The notes under the pieces were generated by a model. The model was not told the origin of the DNA, did not search any database, and saw only the letters and a list, made by a program, of their open reading frames with translations. Shown piece after piece: positions 6,373 to 18,435 of a DNA stretch of 64,000 nucleotides. A program made the position numbers and the translations under genes. This stretch comes from Candidatus Nitronauta litoralis (GTDB lineage: Bacteria > Nitrospinota > Nitrospinia > Nitrospinales > Nitrospinaceae), in NCBI GenBank assembly GCA_015698285.1, contig CP048685.1, positions 1,178,001 to 1,242,000 of the forward strand. The letters run 5' to 3'. The first letter of the stretch is position 1. Each line of letters begins with the position of its first letter.

Positions 6373-7789
6373 GCACCTCTCCTGCTTGCTTGATTGTCGA
6401 GCGGTCGGCCTGCAACACATGCCGGTTAGCTATTGAAATACCGCTCAATGTCGCTCCAATGATACCCAAAAACCCTTGATCTGTCCCGCAAATAAAGAGG
6501 TTGCGGAGCGGCGAACAGCCGTCCTTCACCTTTTGCGGCGACCCGTAAACCGCGCCATTGAGATGGCCGGTGTATTTATGAATGGTTTTTGGCGTGAAAG
6601 TGTCCAAAAATACCACATTTTGACGGAATTCCGGGAAAAATTTGAGCAATTCGTCAACCGAACGCTCCCTTTCCGCCTTTTTGGCCGCTCGATAATCAGA
6701 GCGGGGCAACTCATCCCACCTGGCAAAACTGGCCTGGTTGGTTAGGCGCAAAATGCCTTCTGACAAGGGCTCCGGATACTGGAAATTGTTCGGGGCGCAC
6801 AGAACGCCGGACGTGACATCCGCCAGCTCGTCTGGCACCCGGTAATGGAATCGGTCCGACGTGCAGAAAAAAACGATGCTCTTGTCGAACCCCAGATCCT
6901 TCGGCTCACGGTCGAGCACGAAGATGGATTCCGTGAACGACATGCGCCCTACCGGGTGATCGTCCGCCGAGGTTTCTTTCGGCTGGCAAAGGTTCAGCGT
7001 CTCAACGTATCCAGCAGAAGAGATCACCGAATCGGCTTCCAGCGTTTCTCCGTTATCCAGTTCGACCGATTGCAGTTCGCCATCATCAGAATGCAAGGCC
7101 GCAACCGGGGCACCCATGCGCAGCTCGCCACCCAGGGTTTCAAATTTTTCGCGCAGCAGGTTCAATATATAGGGCATGCCGCCGATGGGTTTGGCGAAGC
7201 CTTCCATGAACACGCTCTTGAACATGATGACGAACTGGTAGAAATCCATGTCGCCTTCCGATGCGTTGCCGTAATACATGAGGGGACAGAAGATCATGTC
7301 GATCAGCACAGGATCGGTGATGCAGGACTCGATCACATCGCGGGAATAGACTTTTTTGTTGTCGTCGAGATTGAGTTCGTCGAAATCACGGATGAGGGTG
7401 ACCAGTTTGCGGAAACCGTCTATTTGAGAGGGGAACTCGCGCGCCACTTCTTCTTCCAGGACTTGAAAATCGTTGGTGAACGACAGGGATCGTTCCGGGA
7501 AACGGATTTCGGACGTGCCCTGCTCGCACAGGCGGAAATCGTCGTGCTTGATGCGGAGTTGTTTGAGCAGCTTACCCAGCGGGGAAGTGCGCACGCCTTT
7601 GGGGGAAAAGTTGGTCATGGCGTGCAGACCGACATCGAACACGCGGCCCTTGCGCGCGTAGAACGAGTTGAGTCCGCCGATCTCCACGTGTTTTTCCAGG
7701 ATGACCGTTTTCTTGTCGAACATAGCGAGCCGAATCCCCGCCGCCAGCCCGGAAAGCCCCGCCCCAATAATAATCGCATCGTATTTCAT
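6365..7789 (-). CDS. Phytoene-desaturase/CRTISO-like FAD oxidoreductase (first of pair)
   Basis: Paralogous partner of the downstream oxidoreductase, 474 residues. The N-terminal Rossmann motif [13 protein letters not shown] (about 6-18) is followed by [13 protein letters not shown] and [15 protein letters not shown], the FAD-binding pattern of the CrtI superfamily. A C-terminal segment ([20 protein letters not shown]) completes the FAD site. It is first in the minus-strand transcript; no strong ribosome site precedes its ATG. Two different enzymes of this family in one operon usually act in succession or as a heterodimer. Phytoene-desaturase-like genes beside fab genes are also a feature of clusters proposed for ladderane synthesis in anammox bacteria; whether this cluster is related needs phylogeny. 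Confidence 0.8.
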
Positions 7790-8236
7790 AAAATGATTGT
7801 AAGGGAGAGCCTATTGAAGGGCAAGTGGTGGAACTATTGCAAAATCAAAGTGTGACAACCAGAGGAATTTCCCGTCACCTCTCCCGCAAAAATATCAGGC
7901 TCATATTCATTACGGTTTCTCTAAAGAATACAATTTGGTGCTATTGGACTTAAGACTGGACATCCGCCAGTATATTATATGGGAATTATGGATACGGTGA
8001 CTGTCCGGAGCAGGTAAATGAAATCCAGATATGAATACTTCCATGACTGTAACAGTTGAAATTTTAATAGAGTCTTTGCCATTTCTTGACTTTTTTAATC
8101 CCAATTTTATTCATATTAGGCATCATGCAACCTTTCTAAAAAAGAGGGAGACAACCTTGGACTAATAACTTCTCGATAAATCACGCACCAAGCCATAAAA
8201 TATGGAACATTATTCATTTCTTCCCTTATTTTTTGA
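7790..8236. other. AT-rich divergent intergenic region
   Basis: This 447-bp gap separates the minus-strand desaturase-like operon from the plus-strand NACHT gene, so promoters for both should lie here. I see no convincing gene; the one open frame (7910-8104, minus) has no coding features. No Shine-Dalgarno site precedes the NACHT start, and its upstream sequence is pyrimidine- and T-rich. Confidence 0.4.
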
Positions 8237-11200
8237 ATGTCTGACTTTTATATTCCTAGAAAATTGTATTGCGGTGATCAAATCGTAAGAGACATTGATT
8301 TGGTTGAAAAAATTGGTGTTTTCATAGTACTCGCAGAACCCGGTGCTGGCAAAACCGACTTGCTGAACTATTTTGGTCGAGCCCACAAGGTTCTATGTGA
8401 ATCAGCAAGCCTGTTCATACACGCTCCAGAATCTACTCAATCCATACTCATCATTGATGCTCTCGACGAATTAGCGCGCATAAACGAAGAAAAGATCACC
8501 GAGATCATCTTTAAGGCTCAAACCTCCGGTGCTCACAAAGTTATACTCGCAAGTCGCTCCTATGTGTGGGACGAAGCGCGGACAAAAGTCGTTCAAGATT
8601 GCTTCCGAATCAAACCCACGATCTTACGTCTCGAGCCTTTCGATAGTGATGAACAACGTCAGCTTTTCCTGCATCACCTGCCAAATGAGGATTTTGATTC
8701 TTTTTGTTCTGAAGTTGAGCGTTTCGAACTCACCCCAATTCTCGGAAACCCACAATTTCTTCTCCTTCTTGCCGAAGCCTATGTGCAAAGCGGCCAACGT
8801 TTTACTTCGAAGCGACAAATCTATGCCGATGCTATACGTAGGCTTGCAAGCGAGAGTGAGCAAACAGCTGGAATGCAGGGCCGTCCTCAGACGGACAAGA
8901 TTGTAGCCGTGGCCGGTGAAGTCTTCGCCAAGTTACTTCTTTCTGGAGCCACAGGTGTTTCTGCGATAGAACAAATCGGCGATGACGCTTATCCCTACCT
9001 CCAGAGTGTCGGTCCAGACGATGGCATTCTTACCTTCGCACTCAATACTCGCCTTTTTAGACCGACCGTGTCCGTCAACAGGCACGAGCCAATTCACCGT
9101 ATTGTTGCTGAATATTGTGCAGCAGACTATTTAGTGAAGATTATCGAAGACCCAACAAATATCTTTTCGATCAAGCGCTGTCTCGCCGTCATTGCACCGA
9201 ATGGGGCCGTGCGAAACGAATTGCGTGGATTGCTTGGCTGGATGGCATCATTGGGCGGTCCTTTGATCCAGGAATCTGTTCTCGACCTGGATCCCTACGC
9301 AGTCTTCGCCAACGGTGATCCCTCTCAACTCCTGCCTTCTTCGAAACAGCGGCTGCTAAAGAGCCTCGAGTCACTCGCAAGTATCGACCCATACTTCAGG
9401 CGCATGGATTCTTGGAGACGATTTAGTGTTGCCGGATTCTTTTCAGAAGACATTATTGAAGACGTTCGCCCCCTTCTAGCCCCAGCATTCTCCAAGTCCC
9501 ATTTAAGAGGCTTGCTTTTAGAGCTAATCCAAGGAGCTGACGCAGTTGTTAGCCTTCAAAACGAGCTTCGAGCAATCATGTATGATCCAAATACTGGATT
9601 TAATGAAAGAAAACAGGCTTACCAAAAACTCGATTCAATACCGGAAAATTATGACATCCCTGATTTTGACTTGCTTATCGGGCAGGCCTCCAAAGACTCT
9701 CTTAGAATTGCTTCAGAGATGGTTTCAAAGAAAGGGTGTAATCACTTTGGAATGACTAGAGTCCGGCAATTAATAAAGGAATTAGCGAAGCTCTATCCTA
9801 ACGATCACGCGAGCAGGCGCATAATCGGTTCTCGTTATTTCATCAAACAGTTTTTAACAACACTCGACCTCAACGAAGTACTGTATCTTCTAAATGAGAT
9901 TACAAGTGGCATAATCTGCACCTGCGGAAAAGAGAAGCCGTATCAGTGCACATGTCGTATAGGAATCAGTAAAATCGCTGGCCATCTTTTGGACAGGTAC
10001 TTCGAACTAATGGTAGGCCCTCATGACCCACACCAAATTTTGAAATGGGTACAACTACTTATTTTTCGAAATCAAATCGATGCGGAATATAGCGCATCAG
10101 TTCAAGCCTTGCGTTCCAATAGCGGTTTACGACGCGCAATACATATAGGTGCGTTTGACGGTCTTTCTACTCAGGAAGATATCAATGCCGCTAGGATGGA
10201 ATTTCTTATGAGGTATAGGCATTCCGGCCTCATCATACAGGTAGGCGATATCCGAGCAATAGTGGATCATGCAATGGTGACTAGAAACAATCCACTCTGG
10301 GAATACTTCATTGAGGCTCATAACCCATATGCTGAACCTGGAGGGGTTAACGAGCTTAGGGCACACATGAGAGCGCAGGCCCGTCAGTCAGCAGTCTTAC
10401 TTCAAATATGGGCCCGTGTAGAACGAGATCGTCGCAATCATTTACGTCAACAGCGGGGCAAATTTGGCCGATCAAATAAGAGTTATGAAAAAAAAGAAGA
10501 AGAGATTAGAGAGAAAAATTTCGAGCGCCTACAGCAAGACCGAATACTAATCGAAGCTGGACAACACTGGGGATGGCTAAAAGTCTTTGCGGGTCAGTAT
10601 CTTCACGAGCCCGATAAAATAGAAGATATCGTTGATGATCCGCAGACCTTAGAAAAAGCCCTGTTGAACTGTTTTGATTTTCTAGCGCCCCACATACCAA
10701 CCTTAGAAAAGCTATCGGAGCAACGGGGTACAGCCATCCCCATGGTCTTGCAGGCAGCATGCCTTGCAACATTCCGCCACAAAGGGGTGTTGGAGGATAT
10801 CCCCTTCAATATCTTGCGGGCCGTCAAAGCCGATGGGGTTGGCGGAGACGGATATCAAGAAGGTGAAATAGAAAGATTTGAAGCAGAGCTAGACAGATTG
10901 ATTTTCCCCTCGGATGCAGAAGCAATAACCTTTGCAAGAAGATATATAGAACCACAGCTAACGCGCACAGAAGATGGCTATATGGGGACCTACATCATTG
11001 ATCACGGCACCACATTCGGTTCCGTCAAAGGGAAACTTGCTTTAGAATGGTTAACACGCTATCCAGAGATGCCATCTACCGCACGTGAGCAGCTATTTGG
11101 CATAGCCGCAGCCCACGCAGACAGGGCAAAACTGAACGACCTCATTGATGCTCGCTGTAATGATCCCATCGATAGTTCCGAAGCCGGGGAGAAACGCAGA

Positions 11201-12205
11201 CAGTTCTGGCTTCTACGCCACTTCTTCTTTATCGCTCCAACCTCCGACACTCTGTGGACAGAATTTAGTACAGACCCTAAATCCATTTTTCCTATCGAAA
11301 ATTATGCTGGGCGAATGTCGAGGCATGATAACGAGGGTTGGCCACATCTAAACGCAGAACAGATTTATCGCGTTTTAGATGCTTTCACAACCTCATGGCC
11401 TAAAGTTGACCTGCCTAGTTCTTGGGGACCAGGAGATCCTGACAATGAAAAGGCCTATCGCTTCTTAAGAGATATTATCTATCAGATCGGGGAAGATGCT
11501 CCTTCAATTTCCATCCCTGTCTTCGACAGAATATTGTCCGATTCCCGCTTTTCGCACTTTCACAACGAAATTAAAAGCCAGAAAGCAGAGGCCGTCAAGC
11601 AGCTTGCTCATATAGACTACAAACCTCCTCGCCCAGCCGAAATTTCCAAGCTCTTGGATGAAAGCAAGATTGCGTCCGTGGAAGACATGAGAGCCCTGTT
11701 GATTGAACTATTAGATGAATATCAGGATCGCCTGAATGGGGCCGCAACCAACCCGGTGGAAGTTTTTTATTCTGGTGATGAGCGTGTTGATGAAAATACA
11801 GCGCGAGACCGCATTGTAGAAAAGCTTGAAGAACGATTGAATGCGCTGCATCTTGGAATTGTTGTTGAACATCAAATGCGGGATGCTAAGCGTTGCGATT
11901 TTACAGCATCAACATCAATCTACGGCTCTCAAGCAATACTAGTTACTGAAGTAAAAGGACAATGGAATAGAGAGCTCTACACCGCAGCATCGGCTCAATT
12001 AGCGGAACGTTACATGATTTACCCTGGTGCAGCAGATCAAGGCGTGTATTTAGTATTGTGGTTTGGTGGCGATGAGAAAATCGCTGGTAAAAAAAACCAA
12101 TCCATCACTTCGGCAAACGAGCTTCGCCAAGAAATTATTGCCAGCTTACCGGAAAGCCTTTTGGGCCGAATTGACGTTTATGTTTTGGACGTCTCAAGAC
12201 AGTAA
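8237..12205 (+). CDS. NACHT-type NTPase with C-terminal PD-(D/E)XK-like nuclease
   Basis: A 1322-residue lone gene, probably an anti-phage STAND protein. The NTPase is at the extreme N-terminus: Walker A EPGAGKTD at 34-41, Walker B IIDALDE at 72-78 with the acidic NACHT pattern (DxxDE), and a possible sensor Arg107 in LASRS. The 30-odd residues between the Walker motifs are unusually few. A long, mostly helical middle follows, with a possible metal site C561-x-C563-x7-C571-x-C573 and a charged coiled-coil-like stretch near 740-780. The last 120 residues hold a PD-(D/E)XK pattern: Asp1221, then TEVKGQW with Glu1238 and Lys1240, then AQLAERYM and a YLVLWF strand. The expected model is ligand-triggered oligomerisation that releases nuclease activity. 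The sensed signal is unknown. The gene has AT-rich flanks and no partner gene. Confidence 0.8.
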   Translation: MSDFYIPRKLYCGDQIVRDIDLVEKIGVFIVLAEPGAGKTDLLNYFGRAHKVLCESASLFIHAPESTQSILIIDALDELARINEEKITEIIFKAQTSGAHKVILASRSYVWDEARTKVVQDCFRIKPTILRLEPFDSDEQRQLFLHHLPNEDFDSFCSEVERFELTPILGNPQFLLLLAEAYVQSGQRFTSKRQIYADAIRRLASESEQTAGMQGRPQTDKIVAVAGEVFAKLLLSGATGVSAIEQIGDDAYPYLQSVGPDDGILTFALNTRLFRPTVSVNRHEPIHRIVAEYCAADYLVKIIEDPTNIFSIKRCLAVIAPNGAVRNELRGLLGWMASLGGPLIQESVLDLDPYAVFANGDPSQLLPSSKQRLLKSLESLASIDPYFRRMDSWRRFSVAGFFSEDIIEDVRPLLAPAFSKSHLRGLLLELIQGADAVVSLQNELRAIMYDPNTGFNERKQAYQKLDSIPENYDIPDFDLLIGQASKDSLRIASEMVSKKGCNHFGMTRVRQLIKELAKLYPNDHASRRIIGSRYFIKQFLTTLDLNEVLYLLNEITSGIICTCGKEKPYQCTCRIGISKIAGHLLDRYFELMVGPHDPHQILKWVQLLIFRNQIDAEYSASVQALRSNSGLRRAIHIGAFDGLSTQEDINAARMEFLMRYRHSGLIIQVGDIRAIVDHAMVTRNNPLWEYFIEAHNPYAEPGGVNELRAHMRAQARQSAVLLQIWARVERDRRNHLRQQRGKFGRSNKSYEKKEEEIREKNFERLQQDRILIEAGQHWGWLKVFAGQYLHEPDKIEDIVDDPQTLEKALLNCFDFLAPHIPTLEKLSEQRGTAIPMVLQAACLATFRHKGVLEDIPFNILRAVKADGVGGDGYQEGEIERFEAELDRLIFPSDAEAITFARRYIEPQLTRTEDGYMGTYIIDHGTTFGSVKGKLALEWLTRYPEMPSTAREQLFGIAAAHADRAKLNDLIDARCNDPIDSSEAGEKRRQFWLLRHFFFIAPTSDTLWTEFSTDPKSIFPIENYAGRMSRHDNEGWPHLNAEQIYRVLDAFTTSWPKVDLPSSWGPGDPDNEKAYRFLRDIIYQIGEDAPSISIPVFDRILSDSRFSHFHNEIKSQKAEAVKQLAHIDYKPPRPAEISKLLDESKIASVEDMRALLIELLDEYQDRLNGAATNPVEVFYSGDERVDENTARDRIVEKLEERLNALHLGIVVEHQMRDAKRCDFTASTSIYGSQAILVTEVKGQWNRELYTAASAQLAERYMIYPGAADQGVYLVLWFGGDEKIAGKKNQSITSANELRQEIIASLPESLLGRIDVYVLDVSRQ

Positions 12206-12482
12206 AATACAAATGGAAAAAACCTTAGCGCAAAGCAAAAATTGCTCAGAATACCTATGATATCCTTCGGATATTACCAGAGCGTCCACAACAAACCTTT
12301 TTCTGCCGCCAATTCATCTCCCTACTAAATAGCTCGCTCTTATTTCCTTCTTTCCTGGATTATCTATTCCCGATCGGTATTCTCTTATTAAAGGGTTAAA
12401 CGACTCTCCCCTGGCCAATTCTTCAAAATGCCCCTTACAAGCACTTTCTGTTGTTGACAAGTTTAGCTTCAGTTGCTAACAT
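12206..12482. other. Short AT-rich spacer after the NACHT gene
   Basis: No gene, terminator hairpin or known repeat seen. It leads into the palindrome upstream of the TetR gene. Confidence 0.4.
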
Positions 12483-12496
12483 ACCGACTGGTCGGT
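12483..12496. promoter_or_regulatory. Palindromic operator upstream of TetR gene
   Basis: ACCGAC-TG-GTCGGT is a 6-bp inverted repeat with a two-base spacer, 13 bp before the regulator start. Its context AACATACC...GGTTT is repeated after the gene with ACCAAC-TG-GTTGGT. Such short palindromes are typical TetR-family sites, so autoregulation is likely. Confidence 0.65.
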
Positions 12497-12509
12497 TTTT
12501 TTTGGATAA

Positions 12510-13097
12510 ATGATTATGAGCAAGAAAGAACAAATTCTCTGTGCGGCGCAGTGCCTCATGCTGGAAAAGGGCTTCGTCGCCACCACGGTGGACGATATCT
12601 GCCAGGCGGCGGGGGTCACCAAGGGCAGCTTCTTCCATTACTTCAAGGATAAGGAAGCGATGGGGCGGGAAGCTTTGACCGATTTCGCCCAATGCACTAA
12701 CGATGCGTTGTGCTGCGCTTTGCCGGAAAATGAAACCGACCCGCTCAAGCGTGTCTACAACGTGGTCGACGCGGCGATCAAGCTCACCAGAAAAAAGGAA
12801 ATCAACGGCTGCCTGGTGGGCATGTTCTCGCAGGAGCTCTCGCAAACGCATCCGGCCATCCGCAAGATCTGCGAACGGCTGTTCGACGCGCAAATCGCCA
12901 GCCTGGAAAAGGATCTGTCTGCGGCGAAAACGAAATACGCACCCAAGGCCAAATTCAAACCGAAGGAGCTCTCCGAATATTTCCTGGCGACCGTTCAGGG
13001 GTCCATGCTGGTGAGCAAGGCGAAAAAGGACAACAGCGTGATGGAACGCAGTCTTAAACAGTACCGGAATTACCTGAAAACCCTGTACGGTAAATGA
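12510..13097 (+). CDS. TetR/AcrR-family transcriptional regulator
   Basis: A 195-residue one-component repressor with an N-terminal helix-turn-helix of classical TetR form: QILCAAQCLMLEKGFVATTVDDICQ split around TTVDDI, then AAGVTKGSFFHYFKDKEAM at about 34-52. The C-terminal ligand domain is variable, as expected. ATG codons at 12510 and 12516 are both usable starts. The gene lies between two matching palindromes at 12483-12496 and 13120-13133, so it probably represses itself and something further downstream. The nearest downstream gene on this strand is the small Cys-rich protein 700 bp away. Ligand unknown. Confidence 0.88.
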   Translation: MIMSKKEQILCAAQCLMLEKGFVATTVDDICQAAGVTKGSFFHYFKDKEAMGREALTDFAQCTNDALCCALPENETDPLKRVYNVVDAAIKLTRKKEINGCLVGMFSQELSQTHPAIRKICERLFDAQIASLEKDLSAAKTKYAPKAKFKPKELSEYFLATVQGSMLVSKAKKDNSVMERSLKQYRNYLKTLYGK

Positions 13098-15897: not shown

Positions 15898-18435
15898 CTA
15901 GGAACTGCTGGCAGGAGTTTTCTCGAGGGCCCGTATTTTATCTTTAATTATTTTGACTTTTTCAGGCTGTCTTGTGCCGAATAACTGGACCGCATTTTTA
16001 AACAGGGGCAATGCTTCTTCCGGTTGTTTTTTCCCCACCATGGCCTCTCCCATGGTTTGAAGAGCCTGCGCTTCGCCATCAGTATTTTTGGTTTTTTGTG
16101 CAAGCAGACGCTTGTTTTGCCCTGCCTTCAAAGCCTCTTCCCAATTTCCTGCTTTAAGAAATGCATCTCCCATTAAACCGAGGATTCTGAGTTCCTCACC
16201 GGTAGCCTTGATCTTGCGGAGAATAGACCGGGAACTGTTGGCTAATTTTATTCCCTGCTCCGGATCTCCAGCCAGCATCAGGCAGGCCCCATGCAGGCCC
16301 ATTGAAAGAGCATGCCCTAAAGAATCGCGGATTTTTTGGTACAGCGTTGAAGCACTCTGATAACTGGATGCGGCCTTGGCGGGTTCATCGGTAAAGAGGA
16401 ACGCATCGCCCAGATTATGATGCAGCCCGGCAATGGATTTGGCGTCTTCGGATTTAACCTGGCTTTTCAAAGCATCCTGCAGGGTTTCGATAGCGGTTTG
16501 TGAATCGCCGGACTGCAATTGCGCCTGCCCCAATGCGGAAAGCAAACGGGTCTGGGAATTGGAGTCATTCATATTCCGGGCCGTTTCCAATGCCATTTTC
16601 AGCCACTCCATGGCCTTGCCGGGATCTTTTGCCAGGAGGTGAGTATTGGCAATTTCTTCCTGGGCTCGAAGGATGGCTGAATGTTCTCCAATGGTGTCGG
16701 CAGCTTTGACCTCATTCTGAAAATGTTCGAGCGCCTTGTTCCAGTTTTTCTGACCCAGGAAAGCCACACCCAGTCCATGCAAAACATCCAGTTCCACTTT
16801 GGGATTTTCCTGTTTCTGTGAAAGCGCGAGGGATTTTTCCAGAGATTCGATTGCCTTTTTCCAATTCTTGACGCTGTTGTATTCTTGCCCCAGAAACAGC
16901 AGACAGTTCAACTCCCCTTCTTCATCCTGGAGATTTTTGGCGGCCAGTAATCCGCCTTCCAGCCAGGGCAATCGGTTCTGGGCAGACTGGCGAAGTTGCA
17001 GCAAGGGATAACCCAATTCGGCAAATCCCTGGCAAATACGCGCGATTTCGTTGTCCTTCAGGCAATTGGCCTGAGCCCACGCCTGACCCGCCTGGAAATT
17101 TTTCCAATCCAGATCAAACAATTGCAAGGCCTGATCCTTTTTGGAAGCCAGGGTTGAGTTAAACAGGTCGTTTAACATTTGCATGCGGGTCATATAAAAA
17201 GTGGCACGCCTCAGGTCAGTTTGTCCCGGGTTAACTTTATTGAGCTTGGTTACCAGCCAGCGTTGAATAGTAGGCGGGATCTGGTACCGGTCGGTGTGCT
17301 CGTTAAACTCTACAAAACCGAGCCGCACCAGCATTTCCAGTTTTATGTTTTCTTTGTCTTCACAAATAAAGGCTTCCGCATCACCATAGAAGCTACCGCG
17401 GAATTGCATTAATTTTGACAATATTAATTTAACCGAGTCCGGGATAATCAGAAAAAGGATCGTCAATACAGTTTCAATTCCTGCCTGATTTCTGTTGGGT
17501 GCAGTTTTCTCAACCTCTTTAAAAATATCGCGCAGTTTTTTAGCGAACTTCTCCGGGTCGAAAGAGTCGAATTCATTCAGGAAACGACCGCAAAGACTGG
17601 CAGCCAGCGGGTTGTAAGCAGCGTAACGACCGATCTCCGCCCCCCAAAACCCAATCCGGCTTGCCCAAAGATTTAACAGGTCTTTTAAATTCTGTTCGGA
17701 AAGCGGCTCCAGTTTTTCCCAGTCCATATTTTCGATTTTTAATTTTTCTTCAGAAGTGAGGATCAAGCCAACGCTTTTGGAGGGTGGCATGAGTTTCAAA
17801 ACTTCCGCTGAGGTTCGAACATTATCGAAAAACAGCAGGATTTTTTTTCCGTGTAACAGTTTTCGATACTGGGCAACCAACCCTTCGAAGTTGGATGGTG
17901 TCTTGGAGCCGGGCGACAGGGAATTGATCACGTGGGCCATGGCCTCGCTGGTTGCCGTGTCCGGGTTATCAGCCAAATCAAAGTTAAAATAAATCTGGGC
18001 TTCGGGAAAAATTGGCGTGATTTTATCAACCACCTTCAAGATGGTTGCTGTTTTTCCTATCCCACGCGGTCCATGGAATGCGTTGAAATGCTTTCCATCC
18101 TTGAACCTGCCTACGATATTCACTATTTCAGTCTTTCGACCAAAAAAATCTTCGGGAGGAGCATCGACCTGATGTTGAGCCAGCGATTTGAGTTTGGAAT
18201 CGCCCTTTTCTTTCCGTACGTTTTCTATTTTCCTGGCAATTGAGGCGAGCCTGGAATTACCAGACCTGGGCTTTGAATTAGACTCCGACGGAGATTTTAC
18301 AAAACGAGACTGGGTTTCCCCACCTTCTTCTTTTTCAGATAGCACCCCACTGTCCTCATTTTCAGGCTTTTTAAAAATGAATATGAGGCCGATCCCGCCA
18401 ATCACAAGAATCATCAGGCCCAATATCATGGACAC
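15898..18435 (-). CDS. Membrane-anchored NB-ARC-like STAND NTPase with TPR repeats
   Basis: An 845-residue signalling or scaffold protein. A single N-terminal membrane segment (ILGLMILVIGGIGLIFIF, about 4-21) precedes a charged linker. The NTPase follows: an FFGR entry motif at 97-100, Walker A HGPRGIGKT at 121-129, Walker B KILLFFDNV at 198-206, and an NPLAASLCG segment matching the GLPLA region of NB-ARC proteins. The C-terminal half is tetratricopeptide-like repeats (for example LGQEYNSVKNWKKAIESLEKS split over helices A and B, and VAFLGQKNWNKALEHFQ). The start is GTG at 18435 (AGGGG seven bases upstream) or ATG at 18429. The ATPase faces the cytoplasm. No obvious effector domain is present; role unknown. 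Confidence 0.8.
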   Translation of the reverse strand: MSMILGLMILVIGGIGLIFIFKKPENEDSGVLSEKEEGGETQSRFVKSPSESNSKPRSGNSRLASIARKIENVRKEKGDSKLKSLAQHQVDAPPEDFFGRKTEIVNIVGRFKDGKHFNAFHGPRGIGKTATILKVVDKITPIFPEAQIYFNFDLADNPDTATSEAMAHVINSLSPGSKTPSNFEGLVAQYRKLLHGKKILLFFDNVRTSAEVLKLMPPSKSVGLILTSEEKLKIENMDWEKLEPLSEQNLKDLLNLWASRIGFWGAEIGRYAAYNPLAASLCGRFLNEFDSFDPEKFAKKLRDIFKEVEKTAPNRNQAGIETVLTILFLIIPDSVKLILSKLMQFRGSFYGDAEAFICEDKENIKLEMLVRLGFVEFNEHTDRYQIPPTIQRWLVTKLNKVNPGQTDLRRATFYMTRMQMLNDLFNSTLASKKDQALQLFDLDWKNFQAGQAWAQANCLKDNEIARICQGFAELGYPLLQLRQSAQNRLPWLEGGLLAAKNLQDEEGELNCLLFLGQEYNSVKNWKKAIESLEKSLALSQKQENPKVELDVLHGLGVAFLGQKNWNKALEHFQNEVKAADTIGEHSAILRAQEEIANTHLLAKDPGKAMEWLKMALETARNMNDSNSQTRLLSALGQAQLQSGDSQTAIETLQDALKSQVKSEDAKSIAGLHHNLGDAFLFTDEPAKAASSYQSASTLYQKIRDSLGHALSMGLHGACLMLAGDPEQGIKLANSSRSILRKIKATGEELRILGLMGDAFLKAGNWEEALKAGQNKRLLAQKTKNTDGEAQALQTMGEAMVGKKQPEEALPLFKNAVQLFGTRQPEKVKIIKDKIRALEKTPASSS

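What the first reader, a model, noticed from the sequence alone, without database searches (positions are those of the whole stretch)
8237..12205. Lone NACHT NTPase with C-terminal PD-(D/E)XK-like nuclease: candidate undescribed anti-phage protein
The sequence shows an N-terminal NACHT-like ATPase (EPGAGKTD; IIDALDE) with only about 30 residues between the Walker motifs, a very long helical centre with a CxC-x7-CxC site, and a nuclease-like end (Asp1221, Glu1238, Lys1240). Bacterial NACHT proteins (bNACHT) and Avs STAND nucleases are known anti-phage defences. In Avs2-like proteins the nuclease is N-terminal; here it is at the C-terminus and the ATPase is at residue 30, so the architecture may be a separate clade. 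AT-rich flanks and no partner gene suggest transfer.
Basis: partly seen in the sequence, partly recalled or inferred. Interest (0 to 1): 0.72.

Follow-up and report, generated by a model that had tools for sequence, protein, structure and literature searches.

The report
EruA-family NACHT nuclease, anti-phage gene
This is a single, horizontally acquired bacterial immune gene of the already named EruA family: an NLR-like ATPase switch fused to a DNA-cutting domain, real and probably anti-viral, but not undescribed.

Summary
The 1322-aa ORF (8237-12205, +) has a NACHT/nSTAND ATPase at residues ~20-150, a long helical centre with a CxC-x7-CxC site, and a C-terminal PD-(D/E)XK fold. Across a 90-row alignment the Walker and nuclease residues are essentially invariant. 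AlphaFold2 plus Foldseek put the N-terminal half with NLRP3, NLRC4, NOD2 and Avs4, and the C-terminal domain with restriction-type nucleases. PADLOC (2023) does not list it. The gene is accessory: over the EruA cut-off in 1 of 77 genomes of its phylum. Genus synteny stops ~430 bp upstream, GC3 is low, and its nearest relatives (58-59%) are Bradyrhizobium. Homologues are lone genes on conjugative plasmids, in viral contigs and at varied chromosomal sites, with no shared partner gene. The same genome carries a related HyoA, also with a C-terminal nuclease motif. Most likely mechanism: the helical centre senses a phage product, the NACHT module switches or oligomerises, and the C-terminal nuclease cuts DNA. 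The reversed order (switch first, nuclease last) differs from bNACHT25 and Avs.

The parts
8237..12205 (+). EruA-family gene, 1322 aa, whole system in one gene
   Evidence: ORF; NF058535 1257.7 bits, residues 13-1320 to profile 11-1318 of 1318
8333..8356 (+). Walker A, A33-E-P-G-A-G-K39-T40
   Evidence: G36, G38, K39 in 89/89 rows with letters
8447..8470 (+). Walker B, L71-IIDALDE78
   Evidence: D74, D77, E78 in 90/90 rows
8555..8569 (+). R107-SYV-W111, invariant Arg and Trp at and after a beta strand (possible sensor-type element, role inferred)
   Evidence: R and W 90/90; strand E101-107 in model
9095..9112 (+). H287-RIVA-E292, invariant motif in the likely C-terminal part of the NACHT module
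   Evidence: H and E 90/90; helix H288-304 in model; role inferred
9917..9955 (+). C561-x-C563-x7-C571-x-C573, probable zinc-binding site in the helical centre
   Evidence: each Cys in 82/90 rows; absent in the divergent plasmid lineages; metal binding inferred
11609..12202 (+). C-terminal PD-(D/E)XK nuclease-like domain (residues 1125-1322)
   Evidence: AF2 pLDDT 85.3, pTM 0.82, alpha-beta-beta-beta-alpha-beta order; Foldseek top hits Can2, MspJI, PaqCI, FokI, BamHI
11897..11899 (+). D1221, predicted metal-binding aspartate
   Evidence: 89/89, on second core strand
11948..11956 (+). E1238-x-K1240, predicted E-x-K of the nuclease
   Evidence: 89/89, at the end of the third core strand
11996..12013 (+). 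Q1254-L-x3-Y1259 helix motif
   Evidence: 89/89, helix 126-135 of the model

Best explanation
A single-gene, NLR-like anti-phage protein of the EruA family. SHOWN: full-length family membership; conserved NACHT ATPase and nuclease motifs; predicted folds; accessory, mobile distribution. INFERRED: in the uninfected cell the protein is held off by the NACHT module. The long, variable helical centre (about residues 440-1040) recognises a phage product or a phage-altered host factor. ATP binding and oligomerisation through the NACHT module then bring the C-terminal PD-(D/E)XK domains together, and they cut DNA of phage and/or host, so the infection is stopped or the cell dies before progeny are released.
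For: NCBIfam EruA equivalog 1257.7 bits over its 1000 cut-off. nSTAND3 over its Pfam cut-off. Residues 1-640 model (pLDDT 88.5) matches NLRP3 (E 4e-8), NLRC4, NOD2 and Avs4 bound to phage portal. Nuclease domain model matches mainly PD-(D/E)XK enzymes. Motif residues invariant. Over the cut-off in 1 of 77 phylum genomes. Homologues on conjugative plasmids and in viral contigs. Nuclease-bearing bNACHT25/32 are anti-phage and need the nuclease residue (PMC12169576).
Against: No experiment here or in the papers held shows activity for this protein or names the trigger. The primary paper for EruA was not found. PADLOC has no match. Foldseek E-values for the nuclease domain are weak (best 4.6e-3, none below 1e-3), although the hits are coherent. 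The gene neighbourhoods of homologues are mixed and only occasionally defence-related.
Confidence: 0.85

Rival explanations
1. Same protein, but the target is incoming plasmid or other mobile DNA, or RNA, rather than phage: a mobile-element rivalry gene carried by conjugative plasmids and prophages.
For: Many homologues lie on conjugative plasmids (23 of 34 matching plasmid records typed conjugative), some directly beside transfer genes.
Against: NCBIfam calls the family anti-phage; the nearest structural class includes Avs4 bound to a phage portal and bNACHT proteins that respond to phage proteins (PMC12169576). The two roles do not exclude each other.
Confidence: 0.1
2. A housekeeping or regulatory STAND protein with a degenerate nuclease domain.
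For: STAND/TPR proteins of signalling type occur in these genomes, one of them in this window.
Against: Over the cut-off in 1 of 77 phylum genomes; active-site residues invariant in 89/89 rows; nearest relatives are alphaproteobacterial.
Confidence: 0.03
3. A clade distinct from EruA with its own, undescribed mode of action.
For: Only 19-39% identity to the plasmid-borne family members aligned; the Cys4 site marks a sub-branch.
Against: It scores over the EruA equivalog cut-off end to end, as do L010-L014 from both sides of the split.
Confidence: 0.08

Closest known systems
EruA (NCBIfam NF058535, NACHT domain-containing antiphage protein)
   Same: Full-length profile match over the equivalog cut-off (1257.7 bits against 1000), same length and colinear
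   Different: Nothing tested separates it; the carrier belongs to a phylum in which no other held genome passes the cut-off
HyoA (NCBIfam NF058534)
   Same: NACHT near the N-terminus, helical centre, C-terminal D...E-x-K...QL..Y nuclease motif; partial profile match (best stretch residues 287-767, whole-protein E 5e-30)
   Different: 103.8 bits against a cut-off of 1200: not a HyoA. A true HyoA is elsewhere in the same genome (G000:C1:1399561-1403874)
bNACHT25/32 (clade 6 bacterial NACHT proteins)
   Same: NACHT module coupled to a PD-(D/E)XK nuclease
   Different: Nuclease is N-terminal and NACHT central there; here NACHT is N-terminal and nuclease C-terminal
Avs4 and other Avs/AVAST STAND proteins
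   Same: STAND fold, large repeat region; Foldseek hit to the Avs4-portal complex; nuclease effectors in several members (own knowledge)
   Different: Effector at the other end (own knowledge); sequence similarity to them not detected here

Membership tests
EruA (NF058535) | Whole-protein score over the curated equivalog cut-off (1000 bits) | tested here: met
   1257.7 bits, E 0
EruA (NF058535) | Full-length colinear match | tested here: met
   residues 13-1320 to profile 11-1318 of 1318
EruA (NF058535) | Anti-phage activity | not testable with these tools
   needs phage challenge
HyoA (NF058534) | Score over 1200 bits | tested here: not met
   103.8 bits, partial
NACHT / STAND NTPase | Walker A and B with STAND-type core fold | tested here: met
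   nSTAND3 over cut-off, NACHT model below its own cut-off (19.5 against 26.7); fold matches NLRs
bNACHT as defined by tripartite order (N effector, central NACHT, C sensor) | N-terminal effector domain | tested here: not met
   ATPase begins at about residue 20; no domain before it; definition from PMC12169576
PD-(D/E)XK nuclease | D...(D/E)xK on adjacent core strands within the alpha-beta-beta-beta-alpha-beta fold | tested here: met
   one homologue also weakly hits Pfam PDDEXK_4 (E 0.0026)
PD-(D/E)XK nuclease | Metal-dependent DNA cleavage | not testable with these tools
   needs purified protein
Known PADLOC (2023) defence families | Any profile match | tested here: not met
   no match at E up to 1

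The most novel reading that the evidence does not exclude
EruA and HyoA together form a reversed-order class of bacterial NLR-like proteins (switch at the N-terminus, sensor in the middle, nuclease at the C-terminus), so activation must reach an effector at the far end of the sensor rather than next to the NACHT module; the Cys4 site would be part of that coupling or of sensing in one branch.
Probability: 0.3. Interest if true: 0.45.

Novelty: new member of a known kind. Interest (0 to 1): 0.22.

Why it matters
It extends an already named anti-phage family to a phylum where no other held genome passes its cut-off, with evidence of transfer from an alphaproteobacteria-like source. It also supplies a deep alignment with testable residues and points to a C-terminal-effector design shared by EruA and HyoA that differs from the usual bacterial NLR order. 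As a discovery of a new system it does not stand.

Tried and rejected
PADLOC (no match). PDB by sequence: nothing meaningful, with the single sequence or with profiles. A single-sequence genome-contig scan found nothing; an alignment query gave 80 loci. Search for a conserved partner gene: the largest neighbour clusters are in 5 of 90 loci and look like mobility or repair genes. Paper searches for EruA/HyoA found only an unrelated E. coli regulator of the same name, PMC12839154. DefensePredictor's main text mentions NACHT in other systems; its supplement could not be read. Promoter and terminator scans did not exceed chance. No related DNA in E. coli genomes.

Full report
OBSERVATION. The ORF at 8237-12205 (+) encodes 1322 aa without interruption. 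In a 90-row alignment of the protein with 89 long homologues (over 1150 aa), Walker A G36/G38/K39 are in 89/89 rows with letters. Walker B D74/D77/E78, R107, W111, H287 and E292 are in 90/90. The nuclease residues E1186, E1211, D1221, E1238, K1240, Q1254, L1255 and Y1259 are in 89/89. The short Walker A-B spacing (35 residues) is normal for the family (32-40, median 36). Each Cys of the CxC-x7-CxC site is in 82/90 rows; the divergent plasmid members (L012-L017) lack it.

FOLDS. Residues 1-640, predicted with 50 homologues, give pLDDT 88.5. The best PDB matches are NLRP3 (E 4.2e-8), NLRC4, NOD2, NLRP7 and phage-portal-bound Avs4. Residues 1125-1322 give pLDDT 85.3 and pTM 0.82, with the alpha-beta-beta-beta-alpha-beta order of PD-(D/E)XK nucleases. 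D1221 is on the second core strand, E1238/K1240 on the third and Q1254/Y1259 on the following helix. Foldseek E-values are only 0.005-0.1, but the leading hits are mainly Can2, MspJI, PaqCI, FokI, BamHI, Mus81 and NucS/EndoMS, all of this superfamily by general knowledge.

IDENTITY. NCBIfam NF058535 (EruA, 'NACHT domain-containing antiphage protein', equivalog) matches residues 13-1320 over profile positions 11-1318 of 1318 with 1257.7 bits; the cut-off is 1000. So the gene belongs to a family already named and described as anti-phage. PADLOC 2023 does not hold it. The paper behind the name was not found in the open library, so what has been published on mechanism is not known to me.

DISTRIBUTION. 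In the phylum only the window's own genome exceeds the EruA cut-off: 1 of 77 genomes, with weak partial matches in five others. Of 60 nearer relatives none has a match to the protein itself. The upstream FAD-protein pair is conserved in order in two genus relatives (82% and 78% DNA identity) and two family relatives, and the DNA alignment ends at window 7789-7810, so synteny stops about 430 bp before the gene. Genes that follow in the two genus relatives lie elsewhere in this genome. EruA has GC3 43%, against 60-75% for four upstream genes and the TetR gene, and 52% for the STAND/TPR gene. The nearest relatives are Bradyrhizobium (58-59%), and the protein groups with them at 100% SH-aLRT support among rhizobial sequences (quick tree). 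This supports horizontal acquisition. Elsewhere the family is on conjugative plasmids, in viral contigs and in Pseudomonas loci with shared phage-like neighbour genes. No neighbour family recurs in more than 5 of 90 loci, and defence neighbours are only occasional (type I specificity subunit, MADS, Hma, EcoRII-type). It therefore works as a single gene, or with host factors only (inference).

PARALOGUE. The same genome carries a HyoA (1750 bits against 1200) about 213 kb away, G000:C1:1399561-1403874. HyoA too is over its cut-off in 1 of 77 phylum genomes. In the alignment with HyoA, D1221, Q1254, L1255 and Y1259 are invariant and HyoA shows its own E-L-K, so both families seem to end in the same kind of nuclease.

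MECHANISM. Best reading: sensor in the variable helical centre, NACHT switch at the N-terminus, DNA-cutting effector at the C-terminus. Variation is highest at about residues 440-560, 640-760 and 1000-1040, and lowest at 281-400 and 1241-1280, which fits a conserved switch and effector around a faster-changing sensor. In bNACHT25/32 the nuclease is N-terminal, is required for defence, and degrades DNA on activation (PMC12169576). Here the order is reversed, which matters for how activation is passed on. Trigger, oligomeric state and target DNA are not shown.

VERDICT. Observation confirmed; function probably anti-phage (0.85); novelty claim rejected: new member of a known kind.

Noticed in passing
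G000:C1:1399561-1403874 (L009 829-5202): A HyoA-family anti-phage protein (1750 bits, cut-off 1200) in the same genome, also ending in a PD-(D/E)XK-like motif.
   Followed up: partly
L009 5319-6098 (+): 259-aa ORF just downstream of HyoA with 'ADFIAEGSIIELKIL', a D...E-L-K pattern like a small PD-(D/E)XK protein.
   Followed up: no
window 15898-18435 (-): 845-aa protein with N-terminal hydrophobic segment, P-loop ATPase region and TPR repeats; found at 71% and 55% identity in two genus relatives, so probably a resident signalling protein.
   Followed up: partly
window 12454-12510: TTGACA-17-TAACAT promoter-like site followed by the palindrome ACCGACTGGTCGGT directly before a TetR-family gene (12510-13097): a likely autoregulatory operator.
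   Followed up: no
L112 4133-8269 and 9039-10592 (genus relative G002): Near the matching site of a genus relative, beyond the conserved FAD-protein pair and an apolipoprotein N-acyltransferase-like gene, lie a serine recombinase and a 1378-aa STAND/Arm-repeat ATPase: the site may be a variable hotspot.
   Followed up: partly
L021 5983-10264, L029, L054, L089: Several EruA homologues are split into two ORFs, suggesting inactivation, insertion or sequencing errors.
   Followed up: no
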